Assembly (NCBI GenBank): GCA_947594085.1
Contig: CANQEB010000044.1
Coordinates: forward strand, 1-12,762
Source: an uncultured Lachnospiraceae bacterium
GTDB taxonomy: Bacteria > Bacillota > Clostridia > Lachnospirales > Lachnospiraceae
DNA length: 12,762 nt
Direction: 5' to 3'
Shown: positions 13-12,383 of the stretch, one piece after another
Layout: each line of letters starts with the position of its first letter
Numbering within the stretch: the stretch's first letter is position 1
Program-made: the position numbers and the translations under genes
The notes under the pieces: generated by a model
What the model was told of the DNA's origin: nothing
Database searches by the model: none
The model's input: only the letters and a program-made list of their open reading frames with translations

Positions 13-3000
13 CTACCACCTTTGCATTTCTTTCTCTGCCCCAAACGTTATCTCCAGAAGCTCCGCCGCGATATCCTTGCTGCACACTCTCATCAGATTG
101 TCCTCCGCATCTTCCTTTGACAACAGATTGACGCTCCCATACCAGACGATCTCACGATCGATCACTGCAAAATGCTCGCAGGATTCTTCCACCAGCCTGA
201 CTTCAAATCCGGCTTTGCGAAGTATCTCCATCAATTCCATCCGGACATCGTCCCTGCCATATTTGTACGCGTCCGGGTGCCAGGTTACGATCGTTACTTT
301 TATTCCTGTTTCCTGACGTTTTCCAAACTCACTTATAATACGGTTCACTTTCTGCGTATTCAGACGCGGGCTTGATATCACAACACTGGATTTCGCCTCT
401 TCAAGATCCCGCCAGTAGGTTTCCGCATAGTTATCAATATCATAAATTGCATTTGCCTTCTGTTTCTCCCCGTCCATGCCGACGCAGAGTTCATATCCAA
501 TCTTTTTGTATGCTTTGAGCCTTGCAGCGTACATTTTATCAAACTTGGGAATATGACTGTCCACATAATCATAAACAATGACATTTTCCTTACCCTCGTA
601 ATCCCGATTAAGCCTTCCAACATACTGCTCTACAACATTTTCTCCTGACACCGGAGCAGCCATGAATAACGTGTCAAGCCTCGGAAAGTCAAACCCTTCT
701 CCAAGCAGCGATCCCGTTCCCACCAGAATAAGGCTCTCAGAATCATCCACCGCATTCAGCTCGGCTACCTGCGCTTTCCTGGCCTTAGTGCCTTCAGAAC
801 CTGTAAGCAAAATCAACCGGTCTGCACAGGTTTTTAATTGATCTGAAAGCTTTTTAGCATGGTCTACGAATTTTGTCAGCACAACCGGCGTGCGGCCGGC
901 CTTAACGCAATCCGCTACATCCCGGATAATCTGTCCATCCCGGACATCATTATTTCTTATAAGCTCATATGCATCATTTCCATATGGTGTCTTTGACAGA
1001 TGGTGCGCCTTTACCGTGCGGGTAAAACGCGGATATACCAGATGATCAATCTTTTGCTCCTCCGCCCGATCCTTTGCCGTGAATCTGTACCGCACAGGTC
1101 CCAGCAAAAACTCGTTGATCTTCTCTTTGCCATCTCCACGCTTAGGCGTTGCGGTCACGCCATACACATACTTCGCGTTTATCTCCTGCAGTACCTCTAT
1201 CGCGCTGTCCGAAGCAGCGTGATGGCATTCGTCAAAATATACCTGCGCGTACTCCTTAAGCATCGGATGAAAGCCATCCTTCTTTTTCAGCGAGCGTATC
1301 ATAGCCACATCTACTATGCCGGCCAGGGTATCATGCGCCCCTTGCAGATTGCCGATCAAAGACTTTCTTTTTCTTATCCGTCCGCCTTTTGTCTTATATT
1401 CCGGTAATTCCTCATCGATGTTCAAAAAATCGTTCAAACGCCTCAGCCATTGATTCATCAGATCCGCCCTGTCTACAAGTATCAGCGTACTAACACTCCT
1501 TTTTGCGATCATATCACAGCATACCACAGTCTTGCCAAAAGCCGTAGCTGCATGCAGGATTCCTGTTTCATTTTGAAGCATGGCCTCGGCCGCCAGAACC
1601 TGCGATTCTCTCAGCTCTCCTTTAAACGAAATATTGAGTTTACGGCCGTCCGATCTTTTATCCTCGATCTCATACCTGACACCGGCTTTATCGAAACGTC
1701 TCTGAATATCTTCCCGCAATCCGCGCGGCAATACGATATATTTTCCTTCATCAGCCCCAAGATAAATGAAGCGGGATTCATCATAATTCGGCATATCCAT
1801 GACCTGATTCTGATAATACCGTCTATTCGAAAATGTCGCCAGACGGCGCAGCTGCCTTTTCACCTTGTTAGACAGCCCGGAAGAATCTATATAAATGCGG
1901 TTTGCAAGTACGATATGCACTACCCCTTTTACGCCGCCGGCATCAATCTCCGAATTTCTATCCCATGGAGCATCATCCCCATCTGTTTTCGCATCACCAA
2001 CACTATACCACAAGGAGAGGAAATCCTCAATTTCCTGCTTTGTCAGCCTTTTTGTTCCTGAAAGAAGCCTGAGCTGATCCTCATATGCGTTCCAATTCTC
2101 ATCAACGAAAGCACTGTTCCCCGATTTTAAAGCCATCCCCTGCAGCGGAAGCGCGATCACATTGCCAAGTCCGCCCTCCGGAAGACTATCCTGTGCCGGT
2201 ATCATGCGATCATAATACCGAAAAGACTTCAGGTTTACTGATTCCGCACCTTTTTCCAGAAGAGCGTATCCAAATCGCCTCGCCAGTCTGGCCGGTACCA
2301 TTTCCTTAAAGAATATCCACAGATGCGCGCCCAGTCCTGATCTCGACCGTTCCACTACCGCATCTACACCAAGATTCTTACAGATACGGCGCAATGCATT
2401 TACTTCCTCTTTCCAACTGTCATCAACATTCGCATAATCCTCCTGCTCCATGCCCTTTCCATGATTATCAAAATCAAATACCAGCAACTGGCAGAGATTA
2501 TTTTCCAGCATCGGATATATCGCAACCACATCACTTCCATTAGGATCTGCACCGACCATATGTGCCTTGATCAATGGCAACGTAACCGGCTTGTATGCTC
2601 TTAACTCACAATCTCTGCACCTCACGCCGTCTTTTTTCTGGATATGGCAGCTCCGCTCCCAACGATTAAAACACTGCGTATAATATCCATTCTTCCCTGT
2701 CCTCGGATTGGTATAACGGAGATCGTACACGTCCTTCCTGCCTCGGCAGAACATCATAAAAAAATTGCTGGCAATTTTGTCAGTCACCTCAAATTTTCGT
2801 ATACGCGCTCCCTGATCCGGATCAAACGCTGTATTCTTGTCCGCGTCGTCTTCCTCACAGATATCCGCATATGAAACACCGGCTTCTTTCAAACGATCCT
2901 TTAGAAGCCGGTTTTCATTTTCCAATGTCTGAATCTTTGATTTCAATTCTTCAACTATTTCTTGTGAGATAGTAATGCTGTTTCCCCGTCCCGCAGGGAT

Positions 3001-3021
3001 TTGATTTATGGAATCTTTCAT
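13..3021 (-). CDS. TOTE-type conflict protein: primase (AEP) - SF2 helicase - PLD-like domain
   Basis: Predicted nucleic-acid-acting defence protein of about 1002 aa. Positions here count from an upstream ATG at 3039, giving 1008 aa. Residues 28-55 form a short coiled coil. Residues 80-345 resemble an archaeo-eukaryotic primase domain: a Cys/His cluster (C123, C131, H132, C141, C144) that could bind zinc, an acidic motif VFDFD (187-191), and an SxH-like stretch ending GAHLW (237-241). Residues 475-850 are a superfamily-2 helicase: Walker A ATAFGKT (498-504), Walker B DECHH (603-607), motif III TAT (629-631), motif VI QYVGRLNR (805-812). Residues 880-1000 resemble a phospholipase-D-type nuclease with D961 and GSVN (968-971). 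These modules in one chain match the TOTE conflict architecture; a role against foreign DNA is prediction only. The ATG at 3021 is chosen because GGAAGGTGAG lies 6 bases upstream; the ATG at 3039 lacks a well-spaced SD. The GNAT gene lies 60 bases upstream, same strand. Confidence 0.88.
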   Translation of the reverse strand: MKDSINQIPAGRGNSITISQEIVEELKSKIQTLENENRLLKDRLKEAGVSYADICEEDDADKNTAFDPDQGARIRKFEVTDKIASNFFMMFCRGRKDVYDLRYTNPRTGKNGYYTQCFNRWERSCHIQKKDGVRCRDCELRAYKPVTLPLIKAHMVGADPNGSDVVAIYPMLENNLCQLLVFDFDNHGKGMEQEDYANVDDSWKEEVNALRRICKNLGVDAVVERSRSGLGAHLWIFFKEMVPARLARRFGYALLEKGAESVNLKSFRYYDRMIPAQDSLPEGGLGNVIALPLQGMALKSGNSAFVDENWNAYEDQLRLLSGTKRLTKQEIEDFLSLWYSVGDAKTDGDDAPWDRNSEIDAGGVKGVVHIVLANRIYIDSSGLSNKVKRQLRRLATFSNRRYYQNQVMDMPNYDESRFIYLGADEGKYIVLPRGLREDIQRRFDKAGVRYEIEDKRSDGRKLNISFKGELRESQVLAAEAMLQNETGILHAATAFGKTVVCCDMIAKRSVSTLILVDRADLMNQWLRRLNDFLNIDEELPEYKTKGGRIRKRKSLIGNLQGAHDTLAGIVDVAMIRSLKKKDGFHPMLKEYAQVYFDECHHAASDSAIEVLQEINAKYVYGVTATPKRGDGKEKINEFLLGPVRYRFTAKDRAEEQKIDHLVYPRFTRTVKAHHLSKTPYGNDAYELIRNNDVRDGQIIRDVADCVKAGRTPVVLTKFVDHAKKLSDQLKTCADRLILLTGSEGTKARKAQVAELNAVDDSESLILVGTGSLLGEGFDFPRLDTLFMAAPVSGENVVEQYVGRLNRDYEGKENVIVYDYVDSHIPKFDKMYAARLKAYKKIGYELCVGMDGEKQKANAIYDIDNYAETYWRDLEEAKSSVVISSPRLNTQKVNRIISEFGKRQETGIKVTIVTWHPDAYKYGRDDVRMELMEILRKAGFEVRLVEESCEHFAVIDREIVWYGSVNLLSKEDAEDNLMRVCSKDIAAELLEITFGAEKEMQRW

Positions 3022-3027
3022 TCCAAT

Positions 3028-3037
3028 CTCACCTTCC
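3028..3037 (-). promoter_or_regulatory. Ribosome binding site deciding the TOTE-type gene start
   Basis: On the minus strand GGAAGGTGAG ends 6 bases before the ATG at 3021-3019. The alternative ATG at 3039-3037 overlaps this site and has only AAGGG about 12 bases upstream. The downstream start is therefore preferred. Confidence 0.55.
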
Positions 3038-3081
3038 ATATCTGTTCATAACCCTTAACCAAAGCAATACGTCAAATAACC

Positions 3082-4104
3082 TTACCCAATTAATAGAATC
3101 TCCATCTCATGCCACTTTTCGCCGCCCCATTTGGATGCGGATCCGCCGAGATCCCGAAATCCGAATTTTGTGTACATCTCCACCTTGTCCTCGTGGCAGG
3201 TGAGAACCATTCTCTCAGTGCCCCTCATCTCTTCCCTGCGGCGGTAATTCAGAACAAGCTCCCGGCCCAGACCCTGCCGCCTGTACTCCGGCAGAACATC
3301 GAGGCCAAGCAGCATGATATTTTTCCCATCCGGGTCGTGCGTTGACACGTCCGTAAAGAATTCATCCCGGAAGGACTTTTCATTCGTGGCAATGCCATTC
3401 AGAAAGCCGGCAAGCTTTCCGCTCTCCCGGTCAACCGCCACCAGAAATCGATCTCCTGCTGCCTGAATGCGTGCTAGCATGTGCTCCCTCAGACATGCCT
3501 CATTGGACGGAAAGCACATTTCTTCGATATCCGCCGCCTCCTCTGCTTCCTCCGGCCTGATGCTCCGGAATTCAAAACGCTCATAAAGCCCCGCCTGCAA
3601 TGCGACTCGGTATTCCAGAAGCCGGTAGGCATGTCCGTCCCTGGCGTCCGTCCTGTCCTCCCCGCCGACCAATGTTAATCCGAGCGATCTTGCCAGCGCA
3701 TTCGACGCCTCGTTTTCCTCCCGCGCCGTGTAGACGAATTCCTTCGCGCCGCGTTCATCCCTGCAAAACTGCATCAGTCTTTGGACAATCTGCTTCCCAT
3801 ATCCCCTGCGCACATAGTCCGGCCCGACGCAAATCCCCGTATCCTCATACGTATGCGGACCCGTCTGCACGACCCCTGCAAAGCCGATCGCCCTGCCGCT
3901 CGCCCGCTCGTAGACCAGAAACGCATCGTGATCCTTCTGAAACGCGATCGTCCCCTCAATCCTGCGTCTGGCCTCTTCCTCATCCGGCGTCAGCTCCCAG
4001 AGCATGTATTTCGCACTCTCCGGCCGCGACCAGACGTTGTCGTACATATCTTTCCAATCAGAATACTTTGCCTTATCCAGAATCAGATCTTCCGTCGTGA
4101 GCAT
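3082..4104 (-). CDS. Tandem double-GNAT acetyltransferase
   Basis: Predicted acetyl-CoA-dependent N-acetyltransferase of 340 aa; substrate unknown. Positions count from an upstream ATG at 4128 (348 aa). The first GNAT domain spans about 10-175 and resembles the RimJ/RimL-type group, with acetyl-CoA loop RRGYGKQI (107-114) after a beta strand ending ICVGPDY. The second spans about 186-347, with a clearer motif A, LDVLPEYRRQGLGRELV (276-292), and a C-terminal YTKFGFRDLG (319-328) typical of GNAT motif B. Both CoA-binding loops look intact, so neither half is obviously degenerate. The start at 4104 is chosen because GGAGG lies 10 bases upstream, whereas the ATG at 4128 has no SD. A promoter-like sequence lies about 100 bases upstream. 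It could be co-transcribed with the primase-helicase gene downstream, but a functional link is not shown. Residues contacting the substrate cannot be read from sequence. Confidence 0.85.
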   Translation of the reverse strand: MLTTEDLILDKAKYSDWKDMYDNVWSRPESAKYMLWELTPDEEEARRRIEGTIAFQKDHDAFLVYERASGRAIGFAGVVQTGPHTYEDTGICVGPDYVRRGYGKQIVQRLMQFCRDERGAKEFVYTAREENEASNALARSLGLTLVGGEDRTDARDGHAYRLLEYRVALQAGLYERFEFRSIRPEEAEEAADIEEMCFPSNEACLREHMLARIQAAGDRFLVAVDRESGKLAGFLNGIATNEKSFRDEFFTDVSTHDPDGKNIMLLGLDVLPEYRRQGLGRELVLNYRRREEMRGTERMVLTCHEDKVEMYTKFGFRDLGGSASKWGGEKWHEMEILLIG

Positions 4105-4114
4105 ATTACATTTT

Positions 4115-4119
4115 CCTCC
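4115..4119 (-). promoter_or_regulatory. Ribosome binding site deciding the GNAT gene start
   Basis: GGAGG on the minus strand, 10 bases before the ATG at 4104-4102. It lies inside the coding sequence if the upstream ATG at 4128 were used, and that ATG has no SD-like sequence, so the shorter protein is preferred. Confidence 0.55.
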
Positions 4120-4210
4120 GCAATCCATTCATCGCGTTTCAAATCAAGAATATCTGCCACTTACAGCTAATACTTTTCTATTCTCTGCGCGAACTTCTTT
4201 CACCATATCT

Positions 4211-5487: not shown

Positions 5488-7407
5488 ATGATTTATGGAG
5501 AGTATGATATCGTGAAGCTTTTTTCCCTTTTGAAAAACAAATTGTGCATGTTTCATTCTTCGTCTGGTCGGTCGGCCTCTCGTTTAAATGACTATCTGCC
5601 CGACTGCCGGTTCTGCCGCCTCACCAGAACGGACCGCGTCTGCATGTTTACCTTGACACTGCTCTTCGCCCTGATGGCGTTTTTTCGGCTCGGGAACACC
5701 TACGCGCCCCAATCCGCCTATACCGCCCTGGCAGAGAATCCGGATATAATCCTGGATTTCGGAGACTACGTCGACATCGATTCGGTCTCACTCTATCTGA
5801 ACTGCCAGTCCAACTGCCATTTCACGCTTTCCGCCTACAACGAGGTCACTCGAAAATGGGAGCTCTTCAACGAGAGCGCCAAGGCTTCCTCTGTCTTCAC
5901 CTGGAATAAACTGAACGTCAATTATAACCTGCGATATCTGGGTCTTGTTGCGCTGGAGAATGACACAGTCCTGAATGAACTGGTCGCTGTGACTCCGGAG
6001 GGCAGCGTGATCCTTCCCGTGAACGCAGGAGAATATCCGGAGCTTTTCGATGAGCAGGAAATGTTCCCCGAAGATGTCACCTACATGAACGGCACCATAT
6101 TTGACGAGGTGTACCATGGACGCACGGCCTACGAGATTCTGCACGGCCTTCCCATCTATGAGACGACACATCCGCATTTTGGGAAGATCCTGATCTCCCT
6201 CGGCATCGCACTCTTTGGAATGACTCCTTTTGGCATGCGCTTCATGTCGGCGATATTCGGGATTCTGATGGTGCCGCTGATCTATCTCTTCGCGAAGCGC
6301 TTGTTCAAAAATACATTCTGCGCAACGGCCACCGCTTTTTTGCTGGTCTTCGATTGCATGCATTTCACACTCTCGCGAATCGCCACGATTGATATTTTCG
6401 CGGCATTCTTCATTCTGCTGATGTATTACCTTATGTACCGCTATTTCGAGGAGGATACAATATACCGACAGGACAAACCCATTTCAACAGACATGCCACA
6501 GCCTGAAAACGCTGCTTTTTCGACAGCACAGCCCAGCCGGAATATTCCCGACGAATTTGTCCCCGAGAACGCTGTCTCCTCTGCTTCCCCTGTATGCGAT
6601 AAGCTTCCTCCGCGTCAAGTGCTCTTCCCGCTCGCGCTGTGCGGCGTCAGCATGGGACTCGGCATCGCCACCAAATGGACCGGCGTCTACGCAGGAGCGG
6701 GGCTTGCACTTCTCTTCCTGCTGCACACAATCCGGCACAATCCGGGCAGGCAAACACTTCGCCTGTTCTTTTTCTGCTGCACCTTTTTCATTCTAATCCC
6801 GCTTGGCCTCTATATGCTCAGCTTTCTTCCCGTCATCACCCGCACCGAATATCCAAGCCTGCTAGAAAAGGTCATCAAATGTACACAGGACATGTTCCGC
6901 TATCACTTCAATCTGGTGGACAAGCATTATTATAGCTCGCCCTTCTATGAATGGCCGATCATATGGATGCCGCTGCTCGCCATCAGCAATGCCGTTGGCG
7001 CAGCGAAGGTCAGCGCTGTCAGCTACATGGGCAACCCGGCAATCTGGTGGCCCGGTATACTTTGCTGCCTCTACGTTCTGTTCCGCTGGCTCATCAAAAG
7101 AGATTGGCAAGCAAGGTTCCTCTCGATCGCGTATCTGGCGCAATATATCCCGTGGATGCTGGTGCCGCGGCTCACATTCATCTATCACTACTTTCCGGCC
7201 TCTATTATGATGCTCCTGTGCATAGGTTATACGATCAACCGCATCGTGCATCGATTCCAGGCCAAAGGAAGAGCGGCAATAGTCGGATACCTCACGATCG
7301 CCGCCTGCTGTTTTCTCATGTTCTATCCGGTCGTCTCCGGATACCCTTTCTACAAGGAATGGGGGTTACATCTGCGCTGGCTCAAAGACTGGATCCTGGT
7401 GCTGTAG
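5488..7407 (+). CDS. PMT-family (GT39) phospholipid-carrier-dependent mannosyltransferase
   Basis: Multi-pass membrane glycosyltransferase, 639 aa, of the dolichyl/polyprenyl-phosphate-mannose protein mannosyltransferase family; expected to transfer a sugar from a polyprenyl-phosphate carrier outside the membrane. The first membrane helix is about 50-67. Residues 72-195 form a beta-rich soluble segment resembling a discoidin-like fold, inserted before the catalytic loop. The GT39 signature follows: FDEVYHGRTAYE (205-216, with the conserved DE at 206-207), then LPIYETTHPHFGK (221-233). Further helices run to about 615, with ATKWTGVYAG (394-403) and the PMT-like IYHYFPA (565-571). A hydrophilic loop of about 50 residues (324-376) is Pro/Ser-rich. 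The ATG at 5488 has weak AGG 9 bases upstream. A GTG at 5512 has GGAGAG 9 bases upstream and may be the real start (631 aa). The 3' end overlaps the convergent glycosyltransferase gene by 26 bases. Confidence 0.9.
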   Translation: MIYGEYDIVKLFSLLKNKLCMFHSSSGRSASRLNDYLPDCRFCRLTRTDRVCMFTLTLLFALMAFFRLGNTYAPQSAYTALAENPDIILDFGDYVDIDSVSLYLNCQSNCHFTLSAYNEVTRKWELFNESAKASSVFTWNKLNVNYNLRYLGLVALENDTVLNELVAVTPEGSVILPVNAGEYPELFDEQEMFPEDVTYMNGTIFDEVYHGRTAYEILHGLPIYETTHPHFGKILISLGIALFGMTPFGMRFMSAIFGILMVPLIYLFAKRLFKNTFCATATAFLLVFDCMHFTLSRIATIDIFAAFFILLMYYLMYRYFEEDTIYRQDKPISTDMPQPENAAFSTAQPSRNIPDEFVPENAVSSASPVCDKLPPRQVLFPLALCGVSMGLGIATKWTGVYAGAGLALLFLLHTIRHNPGRQTLRLFFFCCTFFILIPLGLYMLSFLPVITRTEYPSLLEKVIKCTQDMFRYHFNLVDKHYYSSPFYEWPIIWMPLLAISNAVGAAKVSAVSYMGNPAIWWPGILCCLYVLFRWLIKRDWQARFLSIAYLAQYIPWMLVPRLTFIYHYFPASIMMLLCIGYTINRIVHRFQAKGRAAIVGYLTIAACCFLMFYPVVSGYPFYKEWGLHLRWLKDWILVL

Positions 7408-8593
7408 CGTCTTTCACCTGTACAAGAAGATCGTACCCCACATACAGAATCAGCCCCAGCAGCCCCATCGCCGTGTACTGAAGCGGGACAACCTCCACCG
7501 CGATCAGGTACGGCATGAAGCTGACGACAGAGATCAGCGAAAAGCCAAAAAAGACGGGCAACCTTCGGACATCCAGCATCACATAGACGATCGCCAACAG
7601 ATCAATCAAAATCCCGTATCGTTCATGCATGTGCGGCAATGTGTAGACCGTCAACGCCACCGTCAGAAGCGCCAGGGTCACAGCTAGCCGGTCTGTGATC
7701 TGGACTTTTGGGGTGTAGAGATAGTAGGCGAGCCCGCCCAGAACCGCAACGGCCAAGAGGATTCCCGCACCACTCACCTCGTCTGTGTGATGCAGATTCG
7801 GCATCGTCTCCCCGAGCAGCGCATACAAGTTCGGGTAATTCAGTGTCCCCCACGGGTAATAATCCGCCTGCCCAAAATAGATCGTCAACAGGTCGCCGGG
7901 ATTTCTCCCCATCAGCCACGCCGGAACGATACTGATCACATAGATGATCGGAATCCAAACAAAATGACGCAGCTTTATCGTTCTGCGCTTCGCCCACATA
8001 ATAATCAAAAACGGGAGCAAAAATACAGCCTGCAGCTTAAACGCAAACGCGACCGCAACAAAGATCAGACAAAGATTGCTGTCATCCCTGAAAAACCAGT
8101 AGATCGCGAGCAGCAAAAACGCCGCGTAGATCATATCGCACTGTGCCCAATATGCGCTGTCCAGAAGGACCGCCGGGGAGAACAGCAGAAGCGCCATTCC
8201 AAGAATCGCCTTTCTCGCATTTCCGGTAAGCCGATATACCGTCAAGAGTATTGCTGCTGCCGCCACATAGTCAAAGAGGATCGAAACGAGCTTCAATGTA
8301 TACAAGTCATTGGCCTTCAGGTAGGACAGCAGGCACATAATGTACATGTACGGCGATGAATAATTGGAAATCTTTATCCCGAGCGACCGGAAGCCGCCGC
8401 TCTCTCTTACCTGCTCCATCCACCCCTTCAAAAATCCCGTGTAGTCCGCAGACTCGATCGGCATCAAGCGCAAGCGTACCAGAAAAGCTAATACCAGCAT
8501 ACAGCACACGAAAAGCACGTCCACAATCTGGCACTGAATACTTCCAATCTCTATTTTCTTAAACATCATCCGGTCAAACGCTCGTTTTTCCAT
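7382..8593 (-). CDS. Gpi18-like multi-pass GT-C glycosyltransferase
   Basis: Predicted integral membrane glycosyltransferase of the GT-C fold, about 403 aa, resembling the bacterial group related to Gpi18 mannosyltransferases (COG5542-like). Positions count from an upstream ATG at 8656 (424 aa). A first helix is at 45-63. The following outer loop carries ESADYTGFLKGWM (68-80), where D71 is a candidate catalytic acid. DSAYWAQCDMIYAAF (166-180) and PHMHERYGIL (341-350) are characteristic of this group. About ten hydrophobic segments are visible. Donor is presumably a polyprenyl-phosphate sugar; acceptor unknown. The start at 8593 is chosen for AAAGGG 5 bases upstream. The ATG at 8656 has only AGGA one base upstream. 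It lies 117 bases after hydG on the same strand and converges with the PMT gene, overlapping it by 26 bases with no terminator between. Confidence 0.8.
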   Translation of the reverse strand: MEKRAFDRMMFKKIEIGSIQCQIVDVLFVCCMLVLAFLVRLRLMPIESADYTGFLKGWMEQVRESGGFRSLGIKISNYSSPYMYIMCLLSYLKANDLYTLKLVSILFDYVAAAAILLTVYRLTGNARKAILGMALLLFSPAVLLDSAYWAQCDMIYAAFLLLAIYWFFRDDSNLCLIFVAVAFAFKLQAVFLLPFLIIMWAKRRTIKLRHFVWIPIIYVISIVPAWLMGRNPGDLLTIYFGQADYYPWGTLNYPNLYALLGETMPNLHHTDEVSGAGILLAVAVLGGLAYYLYTPKVQITDRLAVTLALLTVALTVYTLPHMHERYGILIDLLAIVYVMLDVRRLPVFFGFSLISVVSFMPYLIAVEVVPLQYTAMGLLGLILYVGYDLLVQVKDATAPGSSL

Positions 8594-8668
8594 CTCTGCC
8601 CTTTGTTCCGTACGACTTTCCGATCTTACTTCCTGCCCAACGTACCCGGTGGCCATATCCTAAAACCC

Positions 8669-8710: not shown

Positions 8711-10159
8711 TTAGAATCGGAAATCCCTGCTGTTGGAATTCTTGATATCCTCAATATGCTGCGCCGCAATGTTGCGGATCTTCTCCTTCGGGATCTTCGC
8801 GAGCTCCTTTTCGATCAGCTCAAAGCCGAGCTTCTTCGTCTCCTCCGACGCATAATCCACCAGATACTCCGTCAGCGTCATCAGCGCGTTCGGATGGCAG
8901 CAGTTCAAGATCTGCCCGTTCTTGCACAAGCTCATGAAGCGATCGCCCGTCCTTCCCTCGCGATAGCAGGCCGTACAGAACGACGGAATATGCCCCTGCT
9001 CCATCAGCCAGCGCACGACTTCGTCGAGCGTCCTCTGGTCGGACACGTCGAACTGCTCAGAATCATGCGGGCGCTCCTCCTCGGTATAACCGCCCACGGA
9101 CGTGCGGGATGCGCCGCTGATCTGCGAGATGCCGAGGTCAAGCACGCGGCCGCGAACCTCCTGCGACTCTCTCGTCGAGATAATCATCCCGGTATATGGC
9201 ACCGCGATGCGGATGCAGGCGATGATCTTCTCGAACATCTCGTCCGGGATTGAGTTGTCGAACACGTCTGGATCGATATCGTCGGCGTGCTTCACGCGCG
9301 GCACGCTGATCGTGTGTGGGCCGACGCCGTGCACGGCCTCCAGATGCTCGGCGTGCATCAGCAGCCCGGCGAATTCATATTTATACATCTCCAAACCGAA
9401 CAGAACGCCGAGTCCCACGTCGTCGATGCCACCCTCCATCGCGCGGTCCATCGCCTCGGTGTGATAATCGTAGTCGTGCTTCGGCCCGGTCGGATGTAAT
9501 TCCAGATAACTCTGTTTGTGATAGGTCTCCTGGAAGAGAATATAGGTACCAATCCCAGCTTCCTTCAGTTTGCGGTAGTCCTCGACGGTCGTCGCCGCGA
9601 TGTTGACGTTCACGCGGCGGATCGCGCCGTTCTTGTGCTGGATGCTGTAGATCGTCTTGATGCACTCCAGTATGTATTCGAGCGGATTATTGATCGGATC
9701 TTCACCCGCCTCAATCGCAAGACGCTTGTGTCCCATATCCTGCAGTGCGATCACCTCCTGACGCACTTCCTCCTGCGTCAGCTTTTTGCGCGCGATGTGC
9801 TTGTTCTTCAAATGATACGGGCAGTAAAGGCAGCCGTTCACACAGTAATTCGACAGGTACAGCGGCGCGAACATCACGATGCGGTTCCCATAGAACGCCA
9901 GCTTGATCTCCTTCGCGATCTGATACATCTCCTCGACCTTTTCCGGGATATCGCAGGCCAGGAGCACGGAAGCCTCCCGGTGCGTCAGTCCCTGACAGAC
10001 CGTCCCGGTCGCCGTCTTTTGCGGCCGCGCCTTCGCAAGGATCTGATCGATCAGCTCGACGTTATTCTTGTTCTTCTCCGCGTATTCAAGCGTCTCTAAG
10101 ATCTCCTCGTGGTTGATGAATTCTTCTGCCTTCAGTGATTTCGGATTGTAAACTGCCAT
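8711..10159 (-). CDS. hydG: [FeFe]-hydrogenase H-cluster maturase HydG
   Basis: Radical-SAM tyrosine lyase, 482 aa, cytoplasmic. HydG cleaves tyrosine to p-cresol and dehydroglycine and delivers Fe(CO)2(CN)-type units for the diiron site of [FeFe]-hydrogenase. The radical-SAM motif CX3CX2C is at C106, C110 and C113 (CVNGCLYC). The C-terminal HydG motif CX2CX22C is complete (C395, C398, C421), so the second cluster that carries the dangler iron should form. Length is normal for the family (about 470 aa). Stretches such as GGIDDVGLGVLFGL (243-256) and GISQISGASRTSVGGY (343-358) distinguish it from ThiH. AGAGGA lies 8 bases before the ATG. It follows hydE by 154 bases on the same strand, a larger gap than in a tight operon. 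A start-proximal overlapping reading frame on this strand is ignored. Confidence 0.97.
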   Translation of the reverse strand: MAVYNPKSLKAEEFINHEEILETLEYAEKNKNNVELIDQILAKARPQKTATGTVCQGLTHREASVLLACDIPEKVEEMYQIAKEIKLAFYGNRIVMFAPLYLSNYCVNGCLYCPYHLKNKHIARKKLTQEEVRQEVIALQDMGHKRLAIEAGEDPINNPLEYILECIKTIYSIQHKNGAIRRVNVNIAATTVEDYRKLKEAGIGTYILFQETYHKQSYLELHPTGPKHDYDYHTEAMDRAMEGGIDDVGLGVLFGLEMYKYEFAGLLMHAEHLEAVHGVGPHTISVPRVKHADDIDPDVFDNSIPDEMFEKIIACIRIAVPYTGMIISTRESQEVRGRVLDLGISQISGASRTSVGGYTEEERPHDSEQFDVSDQRTLDEVVRWLMEQGHIPSFCTACYREGRTGDRFMSLCKNGQILNCCHPNALMTLTEYLVDYASEETKKLGFELIEKELAKIPKEKIRNIAAQHIEDIKNSNSRDFRF

Positions 10160-11489: not shown

Positions 11490-12383
11490 TCACCTTACCA
11501 GCAGCCTTTTACGGCTGATACATTCCTCACGCTTTGCGAGCCATTCCCTAAGCTCCGGATAGATCTGCTTCGCAAGCTCATAGCCGTGCCAATAGAAATC
11601 TTCAAGCTTCTCAAGATCGGTCTCCGTCCGACTGACGCATGGAACAGTCGGGCGAATTGCAAAGACCTTCCCTTGCTTCTCAAGCCGGTCGATCAGATCC
11701 ATCTCCCGGTTGTAGACATGGTTGCGCATTATCAGCGCGCGGGCCAGCTCCGGATATTTCCGGTAGACGAGCTTCGCAAGCTTCATCAGGGAGGTATTAC
11801 TCTCCTTCTTGTAATACCCGTGCCCCCTCGTCAATATCACAATGTTGCAGTCAAATCCGTCTGCGATCGCCTTGCGCACCGGCACCGAGTCCGCAATTCC
11901 CCCGTCCATCATCGGGACTCCGTCAATCTGTGCCATCGCGGCAGCAAACGGCAGGCTCGAGGACGCGCAGCAGATATCCATCAACCGCGCCTTGTCATGG
12001 TACTCTTCAAAAAACTGTGCCCTGCCCGTTAGGCAGTTCGTGGCTGCAATCAGGCACCTTGTCGGCGACTTCACAAATGCCTTGAAATCAAACGGGTACT
12101 CATGGTACGGAAACTGGTTAAAAATCAGATCCATATTCATGAAATGCTTCGTCTTCATCATCGTGCGGAATCCATACAGCTCATGATCAAGCTGTGCGTC
12201 AAGCATGCACTCTTTTGTTCGCAGAATCTGTCCAGACACGTAATCCACCGCATTGCACGCGCCCGCGGACACCCCGATCACATACGGAACCATAAGCTTG
12301 CGCTCCATAAAATAATCCAGCACACCGCTCGTGAAAATGCCCCGCTGGCCGCCGCCTTCCAAGATCATTCCTACTTTTTTCAT
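11490..12383 (-). CDS. Patatin-like phospholipase
   Basis: Predicted serine acyl hydrolase of the patatin family, 297 aa, cytoplasmic or membrane-associated, no signal peptide. The oxyanion-hole glycine loop EGGGQRGIFTSGVLD (9-23) comes first. The nucleophile elbow GVSAG (37-41) carries Ser39, and the catalytic Asp is in DGGIADS (160-166), Asp160. This completes the Ser-Asp dyad. The C-terminal part (200-297) is Lys/Arg-rich and helical, as in YjjU-like bacterial members. Substrate is unknown; a lipid or acyl ester is likely. A GGGAGGGG tract is 10-11 bases before the ATG. The stop lies 24 bases before hydE, suggesting co-transcription. A biochemical tie to hydrogenase maturation is not evident. 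Confidence 0.9.
   Translation of the reverse strand: MKKVGMILEGGGQRGIFTSGVLDYFMERKLMVPYVIGVSAGACNAVDYVSGQILRTKECMLDAQLDHELYGFRTMMKTKHFMNMDLIFNQFPYHEYPFDFKAFVKSPTRCLIAATNCLTGRAQFFEEYHDKARLMDICCASSSLPFAAAMAQIDGVPMMDGGIADSVPVRKAIADGFDCNIVILTRGHGYYKKESNTSLMKLAKLVYRKYPELARALIMRNHVYNREMDLIDRLEKQGKVFAIRPTVPCVSRTETDLEKLEDFYWHGYELAKQIYPELREWLAKREECISRKRLLVR

What the first reader, a model, noticed from the sequence alone, without database searches (positions are those of the whole stretch)
13..3021. Single-chain primase-helicase-PLD protein as a candidate stand-alone defence system
One gene carries an AEP-type primase core with a Cys/His cluster, a full SF2 helicase and a PLD-like C-terminus, preceded by a coiled coil. 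This is the TOTE-type conflict architecture, known mainly from computation. No restriction, CRISPR or toxin gene is next to it. The gene also looks AT-rich: a hand count gives 24 of 60 G+C at 1741-1800 against 41 of 60 at 9301-9360 in hydG. This fits horizontal gain, though two samples prove little.
Basis: partly seen in the sequence, partly recalled or inferred. Interest (0 to 1): 0.72.

Follow-up and report, generated by a model that had tools for sequence, protein, structure and literature searches.

The report
Mobile primase-helicase with decayed nuclease tail
A gut bacterium carries one large gene that fuses a DNA-copying primase, an XPB-like helicase and a nuclease-like tail that has lost its usual catalytic residues; the gene moves between bacteria and is often broken or lost, which suits a defence or mobile-DNA role, but no function has been shown.

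Summary
The gene is real: a 1008-aa ORF on the minus strand (3039..13) with an AEP primase domain (Pfam AEP-TOTE, 8.9e-73), four invariant cysteines, an XPB/UvsW-type SF2 helicase and a C-terminal PLD-like domain. Primase and helicase residues are invariant or nearly so in 360 database relatives. The PLD HxK pair is not: CxH in 120 of 120 close relatives, mostly ExR in a sister clade, HxK in 113 of 120 of a third clade. The tail is therefore probably a dead nuclease, yet under purifying selection. 'TOTE' is only the domain's name: TOTE means TPR-OB-TBP-Effector, and TBP is absent from 55 of 55 carrier genomes. Nearest solved relative: the PrimPol domain of CAPP; non-CRISPR helicase-fused CAPP relatives are already described (PMC8211822). 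Horizontal transfer is well supported: 82-84% identity in other genera whose GyrA/ParC-family protein is 63-68%, against 47-54% in congeners at 82-86%. At this site one relative has lost the gene and another lacks it. Neighbours vary and are often toxin-like; none is obligate. Defence is plausible, not shown. 'Stand-alone' cannot be judged: the gene ends 12 bases from the contig end.

The parts
13..3039 (-). Whole gene: AEP primase - XPB-like SF2 helicase - PLD-like protein, 1008 aa (or 1002 aa from the ATG at 3021)
   Evidence: Open frame; Pfam; dN/dS 0.144 against the 94% relative
2884..2982 (-). aa 20-52, long N-terminal helix, probable coiled coil; in the fastest evolving part
   Evidence: Model me1bd0fdade24; dN/dS 0.369 in aa 20-92 against the 94% relative
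2023..2763 (-). aa 93-339, AEP (PrimPol-type) domain with D189, D191, H239
2608..2673 (-). aa 123-144, four-cysteine cluster (C123, C131, C141, C144), probable zinc site
   Evidence: Invariant in 360 of 360 database relatives of three clades and 35 of 35 locus proteins; zinc binding itself is inferred
475..1926 (-). aa 372-855, XPB/UvsW-like SF2 helicase with the domain in front of it; K503, D603-E604, R809, R812
58..411 (-). aa 877-994, PLD-like domain
   Evidence: Pfam PLDc_2 7.5e-7; dN/dS 0.125 in aa 870-1000
157..180 (-). aa 954-961 CEHFAVID: where HxK-bearing relatives have HxK(x4)D
   Evidence: CxH 120/120 in this clade, HxK 113/120 in the third clade
3082..4128 (-). Upstream neighbour: double GNAT acetyltransferase, 42 bases before the ATG at 3039; marks the site where relatives have or lack the gene
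   Evidence: Orthologue 91% in G005 without the primase gene; 94% in G023 with it; 90% in G009 with a contig-cut copy of it

Best explanation
The gene encodes a horizontally spreading, single-chain DNA-processing enzyme related to the CAPP_A PrimPols. An AEP primase-polymerase with a probable zinc site is fused to an XPB/UvsW-like DNA translocase, followed by a PLD-fold tail that has lost its nuclease residues and probably serves to bind DNA or to dimerise. Most likely it acts in conflict with foreign DNA: the helicase remodels stalled, branched or invading DNA, and the primase makes or extends primers on the exposed strand, disturbing the invader's replication or turning its DNA into a substrate for other host functions. 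Shown here: domain identity, conservation of primase and helicase sites, loss of the PLD catalytic pair, horizontal transfer, frequent breakage and loss, and variable, often operon-like neighbours. Inferred: enzymatic activity, target, the role of the tail, and defence as the selected benefit.
For: Domains. Sites: of 360 database relatives D189 in 359, D191 in 359, H239 in 359, K503 in 360, D603 in 360. Patchy in the genus: 7 of 35 congeners have a full-length open copy, 11 only broken, short or contig-cut traces, 17 no trace beyond distant helicases (many of these assemblies are incomplete). 70 of 393 genomes and 45 of 174 genera of the order carry the domain. Transfer: other genera G389, G129, G304, G315 have 82-84% identical copies although their GyrA/ParC-family protein is 63-68% identical, while congeners G001, G011, G012, G017, G020 have 47-54% copies at 82-86%. 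At this site L064 keeps GNAT joined to the last ~118 bases of the gene, a clear loss; G005 has GNAT but no primase gene, and since its GyrA/ParC-family protein (97%) is closer to this genome's than that of the carrier G023 (95%), a second loss is the simpler reading. In 42 of 86 loci the gene lies within 60 bases of a same-strand upstream gene. First neighbours include AAA_14, AlbA/Schlafen, HEPN, Fic, AbiEii and DUF4411 families; of these only Fic (2 of 137) is among the 25 of 122 families listed for the distant control genes.
Against: No phage or plasmid test exists. PADLOC tallies near and far do not separate (167 and 172 families), and the distant set also holds defence genes: Wadjet, CRISPR Cas8c/Csd1, restriction enzymes and nSTAND3. 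Nothing was found in IMG/VR with six peptide patterns, and no phage record covers 80% of the protein, so there is no direct link to phage. Neighbours are not constant: the commonest one, a metallophosphoesterase, is also found away from the gene, in this genome too. Neighbour counts are not independent, as several loci share a lineage. G+C and codon use are ordinary for the genome. The closest families are equally well known as replication, repair and mobile-element enzymes.
Confidence: 0.45

Rival explanations
1. An accessory repair or replication-restart enzyme: the XPB/UvsW-like motor remodels stalled forks or lesions and the PrimPol reprimes downstream. It spreads horizontally but serves the host chromosome.
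Against: No trace in 17 of 35 congeners; repeatedly broken or deleted; congeners carry mostly 47-54% identical versions.
Confidence: 0.28
2. A mobile-element enzyme: a replication or mobilisation factor left behind by, or travelling with, integrative elements.
For: PLD-less relatives on proteobacterial plasmids have three tyrosine recombinases within about 0.9 kb in 5 of 8 inspected regions, and one follows TniB-TniQ directly. PMC8211822 says non-CRISPR CAPP relatives, most often helicase-fused, are typically in mobile and transposable elements, with others in phage genomes.
Against: Resolvase in only 3 and Recombinase in 2 of 150 first neighbours in this set. Outside loci that share a neighbour, DNA similarity ends near the edges of the coding sequence, so no shared element ends are visible.
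Confidence: 0.17
3. A component of a multi-gene toxin system: the gene works with the upstream or downstream toxin-like gene (for example DUF3990/DUF3791) and is not stand-alone.
For: In L049 an HTH-like gene, DUF3791, DUF3990, a 79-aa PDC-M13C-like gene and the primase gene overlap in turn by 4, 4, 1 and 4 bases, with related pieces in L039, L040, L045, L061; DUF3791-DUF3990 lies directly downstream in G023.
Against: DUF3990 occurs in 49 of 62 carrier genomes but lies next to the primase gene in only 1 of them (my comparison of places); other loci have quite different neighbours.
Confidence: 0.1

Closest known systems
CAPP_A PrimPols (CRISPR-associated primase-polymerases), helicase-fused type, and their non-CRISPR homologues (PMC8211822; passages and the Discussion section seen)
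   Different: No cas1/cas2 in view; 77 bits against the 200-bit cut-off of NCBIfam PrimPol_Msp; a PLD-like tail that the passages seen do not mention.
AEP-TOTE domain / TOTE conflict systems (TPR, OB, TBP, Effector; passages of PMC12458937, which cites Aravind 2022; that review is not held)
   Same: The primase domain belongs to the Pfam family named after these systems (245 bits, cut-off 27).
   Different: No TBP in 55 of 55 carrier genomes; no TPR-OB gene recognised beside it.
Archaeal XPB (XPB-Bax1) and phage T4 UvsW helicases
   Different: Fused to a primase; far below the XPB equivalog cut-off (40 against 610 bits).
ATP-dependent restriction enzyme SauUSI (7clg)
   Same: Helicase similarity 2.8e-10; like this protein it joins an SF2 helicase to a PLD-type domain (the PLD part is recalled).
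   Different: No primase there (recalled); here the tail lacks the HxK pair.

Membership tests
AEP-TOTE domain family (PF22548) | Profile score above the curated cut-off | tested here: met
   245.1 bits against 27
AEP primase superfamily | Motifs hhhDhD/E, sxH and hD/E | tested here: met
   VFDFD 187-191, SRSGLGAH 232-239, YDR 276-278, conserved in nearly all relatives; motif definition from a passage of PMC5862659; taking D277 as motif III is inferred
TOTE conflict system | TBP gene in the system | tested here: not met
   0 of 55 carrier genomes have PF00352, with 4 of 14 control genomes positive; 50 of the 55 are at least 90% complete and at most 5% contaminated
TOTE conflict system | TPR-OB (cold-shock) gene in the operon | tested here: inconclusive
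   None among the 5 of 8 upstream window genes scanned against Pfam or NCBIfam; not among the first 25 of 98 families of 150 neighbours; downstream side cut off by the contig end
CAPP (CRISPR-associated PrimPol) | PrimPol domain related to MpCAPP | tested here: met
CAPP (CRISPR-associated PrimPol) | cas1/cas2 or a CRISPR array beside the gene | tested here: inconclusive
   None among the scanned upstream genes; no Cas family among the first 25 of 98 families of 150 first neighbours; no CRISPR array search was run; downstream side cut off
XPB/UvsW-type SF2 helicase | Complete helicase core with Walker A, DExH and motif VI residues and the same fold | tested here: met
   GKT 502-504, DECH 603-606, Q805/R809/R812; fold matches
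PLD superfamily nuclease | PLD profile | tested here: met
   PLDc_2 29.5 bits, just above 27; the tail was not folded and searched alone
PLD superfamily nuclease | Catalytic HxK(x4)D motif (recalled) | tested here: not met
   CEH(x4)D; CxH in 120/120 close relatives; HxK in 113/120 of a distant clade
Anti-phage defence system | Protection against phage or plasmid | not testable with these tools
   Needs a challenge experiment
Anti-phage defence system | Location among defence genes more often than chance | tested here: inconclusive
   PADLOC near and far not separated; toxin-like Pfam families look commoner near, no formal test, capped lists

The most novel reading that the evidence does not exclude
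A widespread immune enzyme of gut Clostridia that works by DNA synthesis instead of cutting: the helicase opens the invader's DNA and the PrimPol floods it with primers or copies. In two large clades the ancestral PLD nuclease has been converted into a sensor or DNA-binding tail, in this clade with a fixed Cys-x-His...Asp site that could even be a new catalytic or metal site.
Probability: 0.12. Interest if true: 0.75.

Novelty: new member of a known kind. Interest (0 to 1): 0.36.

Why it matters
The family is very common in sequenced microbial DNA: 4698, 5819 and 8000 proteins at E up to 0.001 in three searches capped at about 8000 scored candidates each (they overlap, and distant helicases may be among them). 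I found no paper that tests this architecture (limited to the held library). If it is immune, it would show a non-cutting, primase-based mechanism. The natural contrast between a clade with an intact HxK tail and two clades without it makes the role of that tail directly testable.

Tried and rejected
TOTE system as such: rejected, because TBP is missing. DUF3990 as the fixed partner: rejected; next to the gene in only 1 of 62 carrier genomes. Metallophosphoesterase as an obligate partner: rejected; it is in 42 of 397 genomes, and of the ten copies inspected two have an open or contig-cut primase gene behind them, one has a remnant of it, six have none and one is cut by the contig end. The copies with the gene or remnant are among the closest ones (83-90%). 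Phage gene: no support. Compositional foreignness as proof of transfer: weak. Defence-island enrichment by PADLOC: not decided.

The first structure model had mean pLDDT 58 and was not used; the second has 79. The viral fold search gave only helicase-type hits among nearly all its named rows. rpoB was not found in this incomplete genome, so a GyrA/ParC-family protein found below the gyrA cut-off (736 against 877 bits) served as the yardstick. HydG as a second yardstick had no match in 8 of 20 genomes and only distant ones in two.

Limits: gene neighbours come from my own simple ORF caller, so small spurious ORFs occur; one search ended with an error before listing L064 and the window, and part's listing was cut. 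For the neighbour scans 150 of 170 first neighbours and 137 of 147 distant genes were given; I dropped those over 900 aa, very short ones and pieces of the primase gene. One of six 'plasmid' rows is a wrong ORF (L067:9956-12580); the other five are the relatives.

Full report
The observation. The window is a complete contig (C44, 12,762 bases) of a fragmented genome assembly, 71% complete in 319 contigs. The gene ends 12 bases before the contig end, so its downstream side cannot be seen.

Catalytic sites. I aligned 402 sequences: the window, 360 database proteins from three searches (clade 1 around the window protein, clade 2 at about 48% identity, clade 3 at about 38%), 35 locus proteins and 6 plasmid ORFs, one of them a wrong ORF. 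The four cysteines are invariant in 360 of 360; D189, D191 and H239 are each present in 359 of 360; K503, D603, E604, R809 and R812 in 360 of 360. The PLD pair behaves differently: CxH in 120 of 120 of clade 1, ExR in 99 of 120 of clade 2, HxK in 113 of 120 of clade 3. The Asp and the GS/GG-N part of the motif remain. That HxK(x4)D is the catalytic motif of the PLD family is recalled knowledge. The simplest reading is that an ancestral nuclease tail lost catalysis in the clade of this gene. The clade 1 proteins are 85% or more identical to the query, so 120 of 120 is weaker evidence than it sounds. Among 73 locus proteins whose tail matched a script's pattern there were CxH 42, HxH 8, CxR 7 and other combinations, none HxK; L140 (38% identity), missed by that pattern, has an intact HxK. 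The tail is still constrained: dN/dS is 0.125 for aa 870-1000 and 0.144 for the whole gene against the 94% relative. Comparisons at 85% and below are close to or beyond saturation at synonymous sites.

Spread. In the genus, 7 of 35 other genomes have a full-length open copy, 11 only broken, short or contig-cut traces and 17 no trace beyond distant helicases (my count). In the order, 70 of 393 genomes and 45 of 174 genera carry the domain. Identity does not follow relationship: genera G389, G129, G304 and G315 hold 82-84% identical copies with a GyrA/ParC-family protein of 63-68% identity; congeners G001, G011, G012, G017 and G020 hold 47-54% copies with that protein at 82-86%; the congener G003 (88%) holds an 84% copy. 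By contrast G023 (94%) and the contig-cut copy of G009 (91%), both with HydG at 99%, look vertical. Six peptide patterns found nothing in IMG/VR, and no phage record covers 80% of the protein.

The site. A GNAT gene lies 42 bases upstream. G023 and G009 have the same order. G005, with HydG 99% and the GyrA/ParC-family protein 97% identical to this genome's, keeps GNAT but has no primase gene; the end of GNAT runs into sequence resembling the start of the DUF3791 gene that follows the primase gene in G023. This could be a site that never held the gene, but as G005 is closer to this genome than the carrier G023 (95%), loss is the simpler reading. In L064 GNAT is joined to the last ~118 bases of the primase gene (93% identical): a clear loss. 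Absence and loss at one site, broken copies elsewhere and transfer between genera show fast turnover.

Neighbours. In 92 non-redundant loci the upstream gene is on the same strand in 72 of 86 cases and also within 60 bases in 42 of 86; downstream in 61 and 18 of 84. The commonest first neighbours by Pfam are metallophosphoesterases (9 of 150), AAA_14 (6), HATPase_c_4 (6), AlbA/Schlafen (5) and GNAT (5), with HEPN 3, Fic 3, AbiEii 2 and DUF4411 2; several of these loci share a lineage. Among 137 genes at least 4.5 kb away the listed families are mostly metabolic or signalling, with Fic 2, nSTAND3 2 and Cas_Csd1 1. PADLOC did not separate the two sets (167 and 172 families); the distant set includes Wadjet, Cas8c and restriction models. 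No partner is obligate: the metallophosphoesterase also occurs without the gene, and DUF3990 lies next to it in only 1 of 62 carriers. On proteobacterial plasmids the relatives in the inspected regions (34-37% identity) lack the PLD tail; three tyrosine recombinases lie within about 0.9 kb in 5 of 8 regions, TniB-TniQ directly before in one, HigB and a regulator in one, HipA in one.

What is known. TOTE stands for TPR, OB, TBP, Effector (PMC12458937, passages seen). TBP is absent from all 55 carriers searched, so the window gene belongs to the domain family but is not shown to be part of a TOTE system. PMC8211822 (passages and Discussion seen) describes CAPP_A PrimPols with a helicase-fused type and states that non-CRISPR relatives, most often with a putative helicase domain, are typically in mobile and transposable elements, with others in phage genomes. 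That is the nearest described kind. I found no paper on the primase-helicase-PLD form in the held library.

Verdict. The architecture call was good. The GC argument was weak, but the transfer conclusion is right for other reasons. The defence claim remains open: turnover, transfer and toxin-like company favour it; a degenerate nuclease tail, no fixed partner and no clear defence-island signal limit it. I give 0.45 to a conflict role, 0.28 to repair or replication restart, 0.17 to a mobile-element function and 0.10 to a part of a multi-gene toxin system.

Noticed in passing
L065, L067, L195, L196, L197 (plasmid regions): PLD-less AEP-helicase genes have a trio of tyrosine recombinases next door (within about 0.9 kb) on alphaproteobacterial plasmids. 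Gemmobacter fulvus and Dinoroseobacter shibae DFL 12 each have such a helicase gene on two plasmids (one plasmid of each inspected); they may travel with recombinase-trio elements.
   Followed up: partly
L068 9974-12421 (Sphingobium plasmid): An AEP-helicase gene overlaps the end of a TniQ gene in a Tn7-like TniB-TniQ operon, as if it were part of the transposition machinery or its cargo.
   Followed up: no
L049 8772-12976; also L039, L040, L045, L061; L091 7072-7877: HTH-like, DUF3791, DUF3990, a 79-aa PDC-M13C-like gene and the primase gene overlap by 1-4 bases in L049; in the 94% relative DUF3791-DUF3990 lies downstream instead. DUF3990 matches PADLOC's candidate family PDC-M13 and, weakly, an ADP-ribosyltransferase model.
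   Followed up: partly
window 157-180 and relatives: Clade-specific replacement of the PLD HxK pair: CxH here, mostly ExR in a sister clade, HxH in some others, intact in a distant clade; the domain stays under purifying selection.
   Followed up: partly
L064 8965-10114; L090 5612-6700: The same GNAT gene with the primase gene deleted to its last ~118 bases (L064) or absent (L090, G005).
   Followed up: yes
L219 7307-7602 (G583): Internally deleted remnant of the primase gene (aa 27-107 and 500-522) directly behind a metallophosphoesterase gene.
   Followed up: partly
window 7382-7407: Two convergent ORFs (5488-7407 plus, 7382-8656 minus), by eye membrane glycosyltransferase-like, overlap tail to tail by 26 bases.
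   Followed up: no
window 11490-12383: Patatin-like phospholipase with a weak, sub-threshold match to the CBASS lipase model (24 bits against 200), beside hydE; probably ordinary.
   Followed up: no
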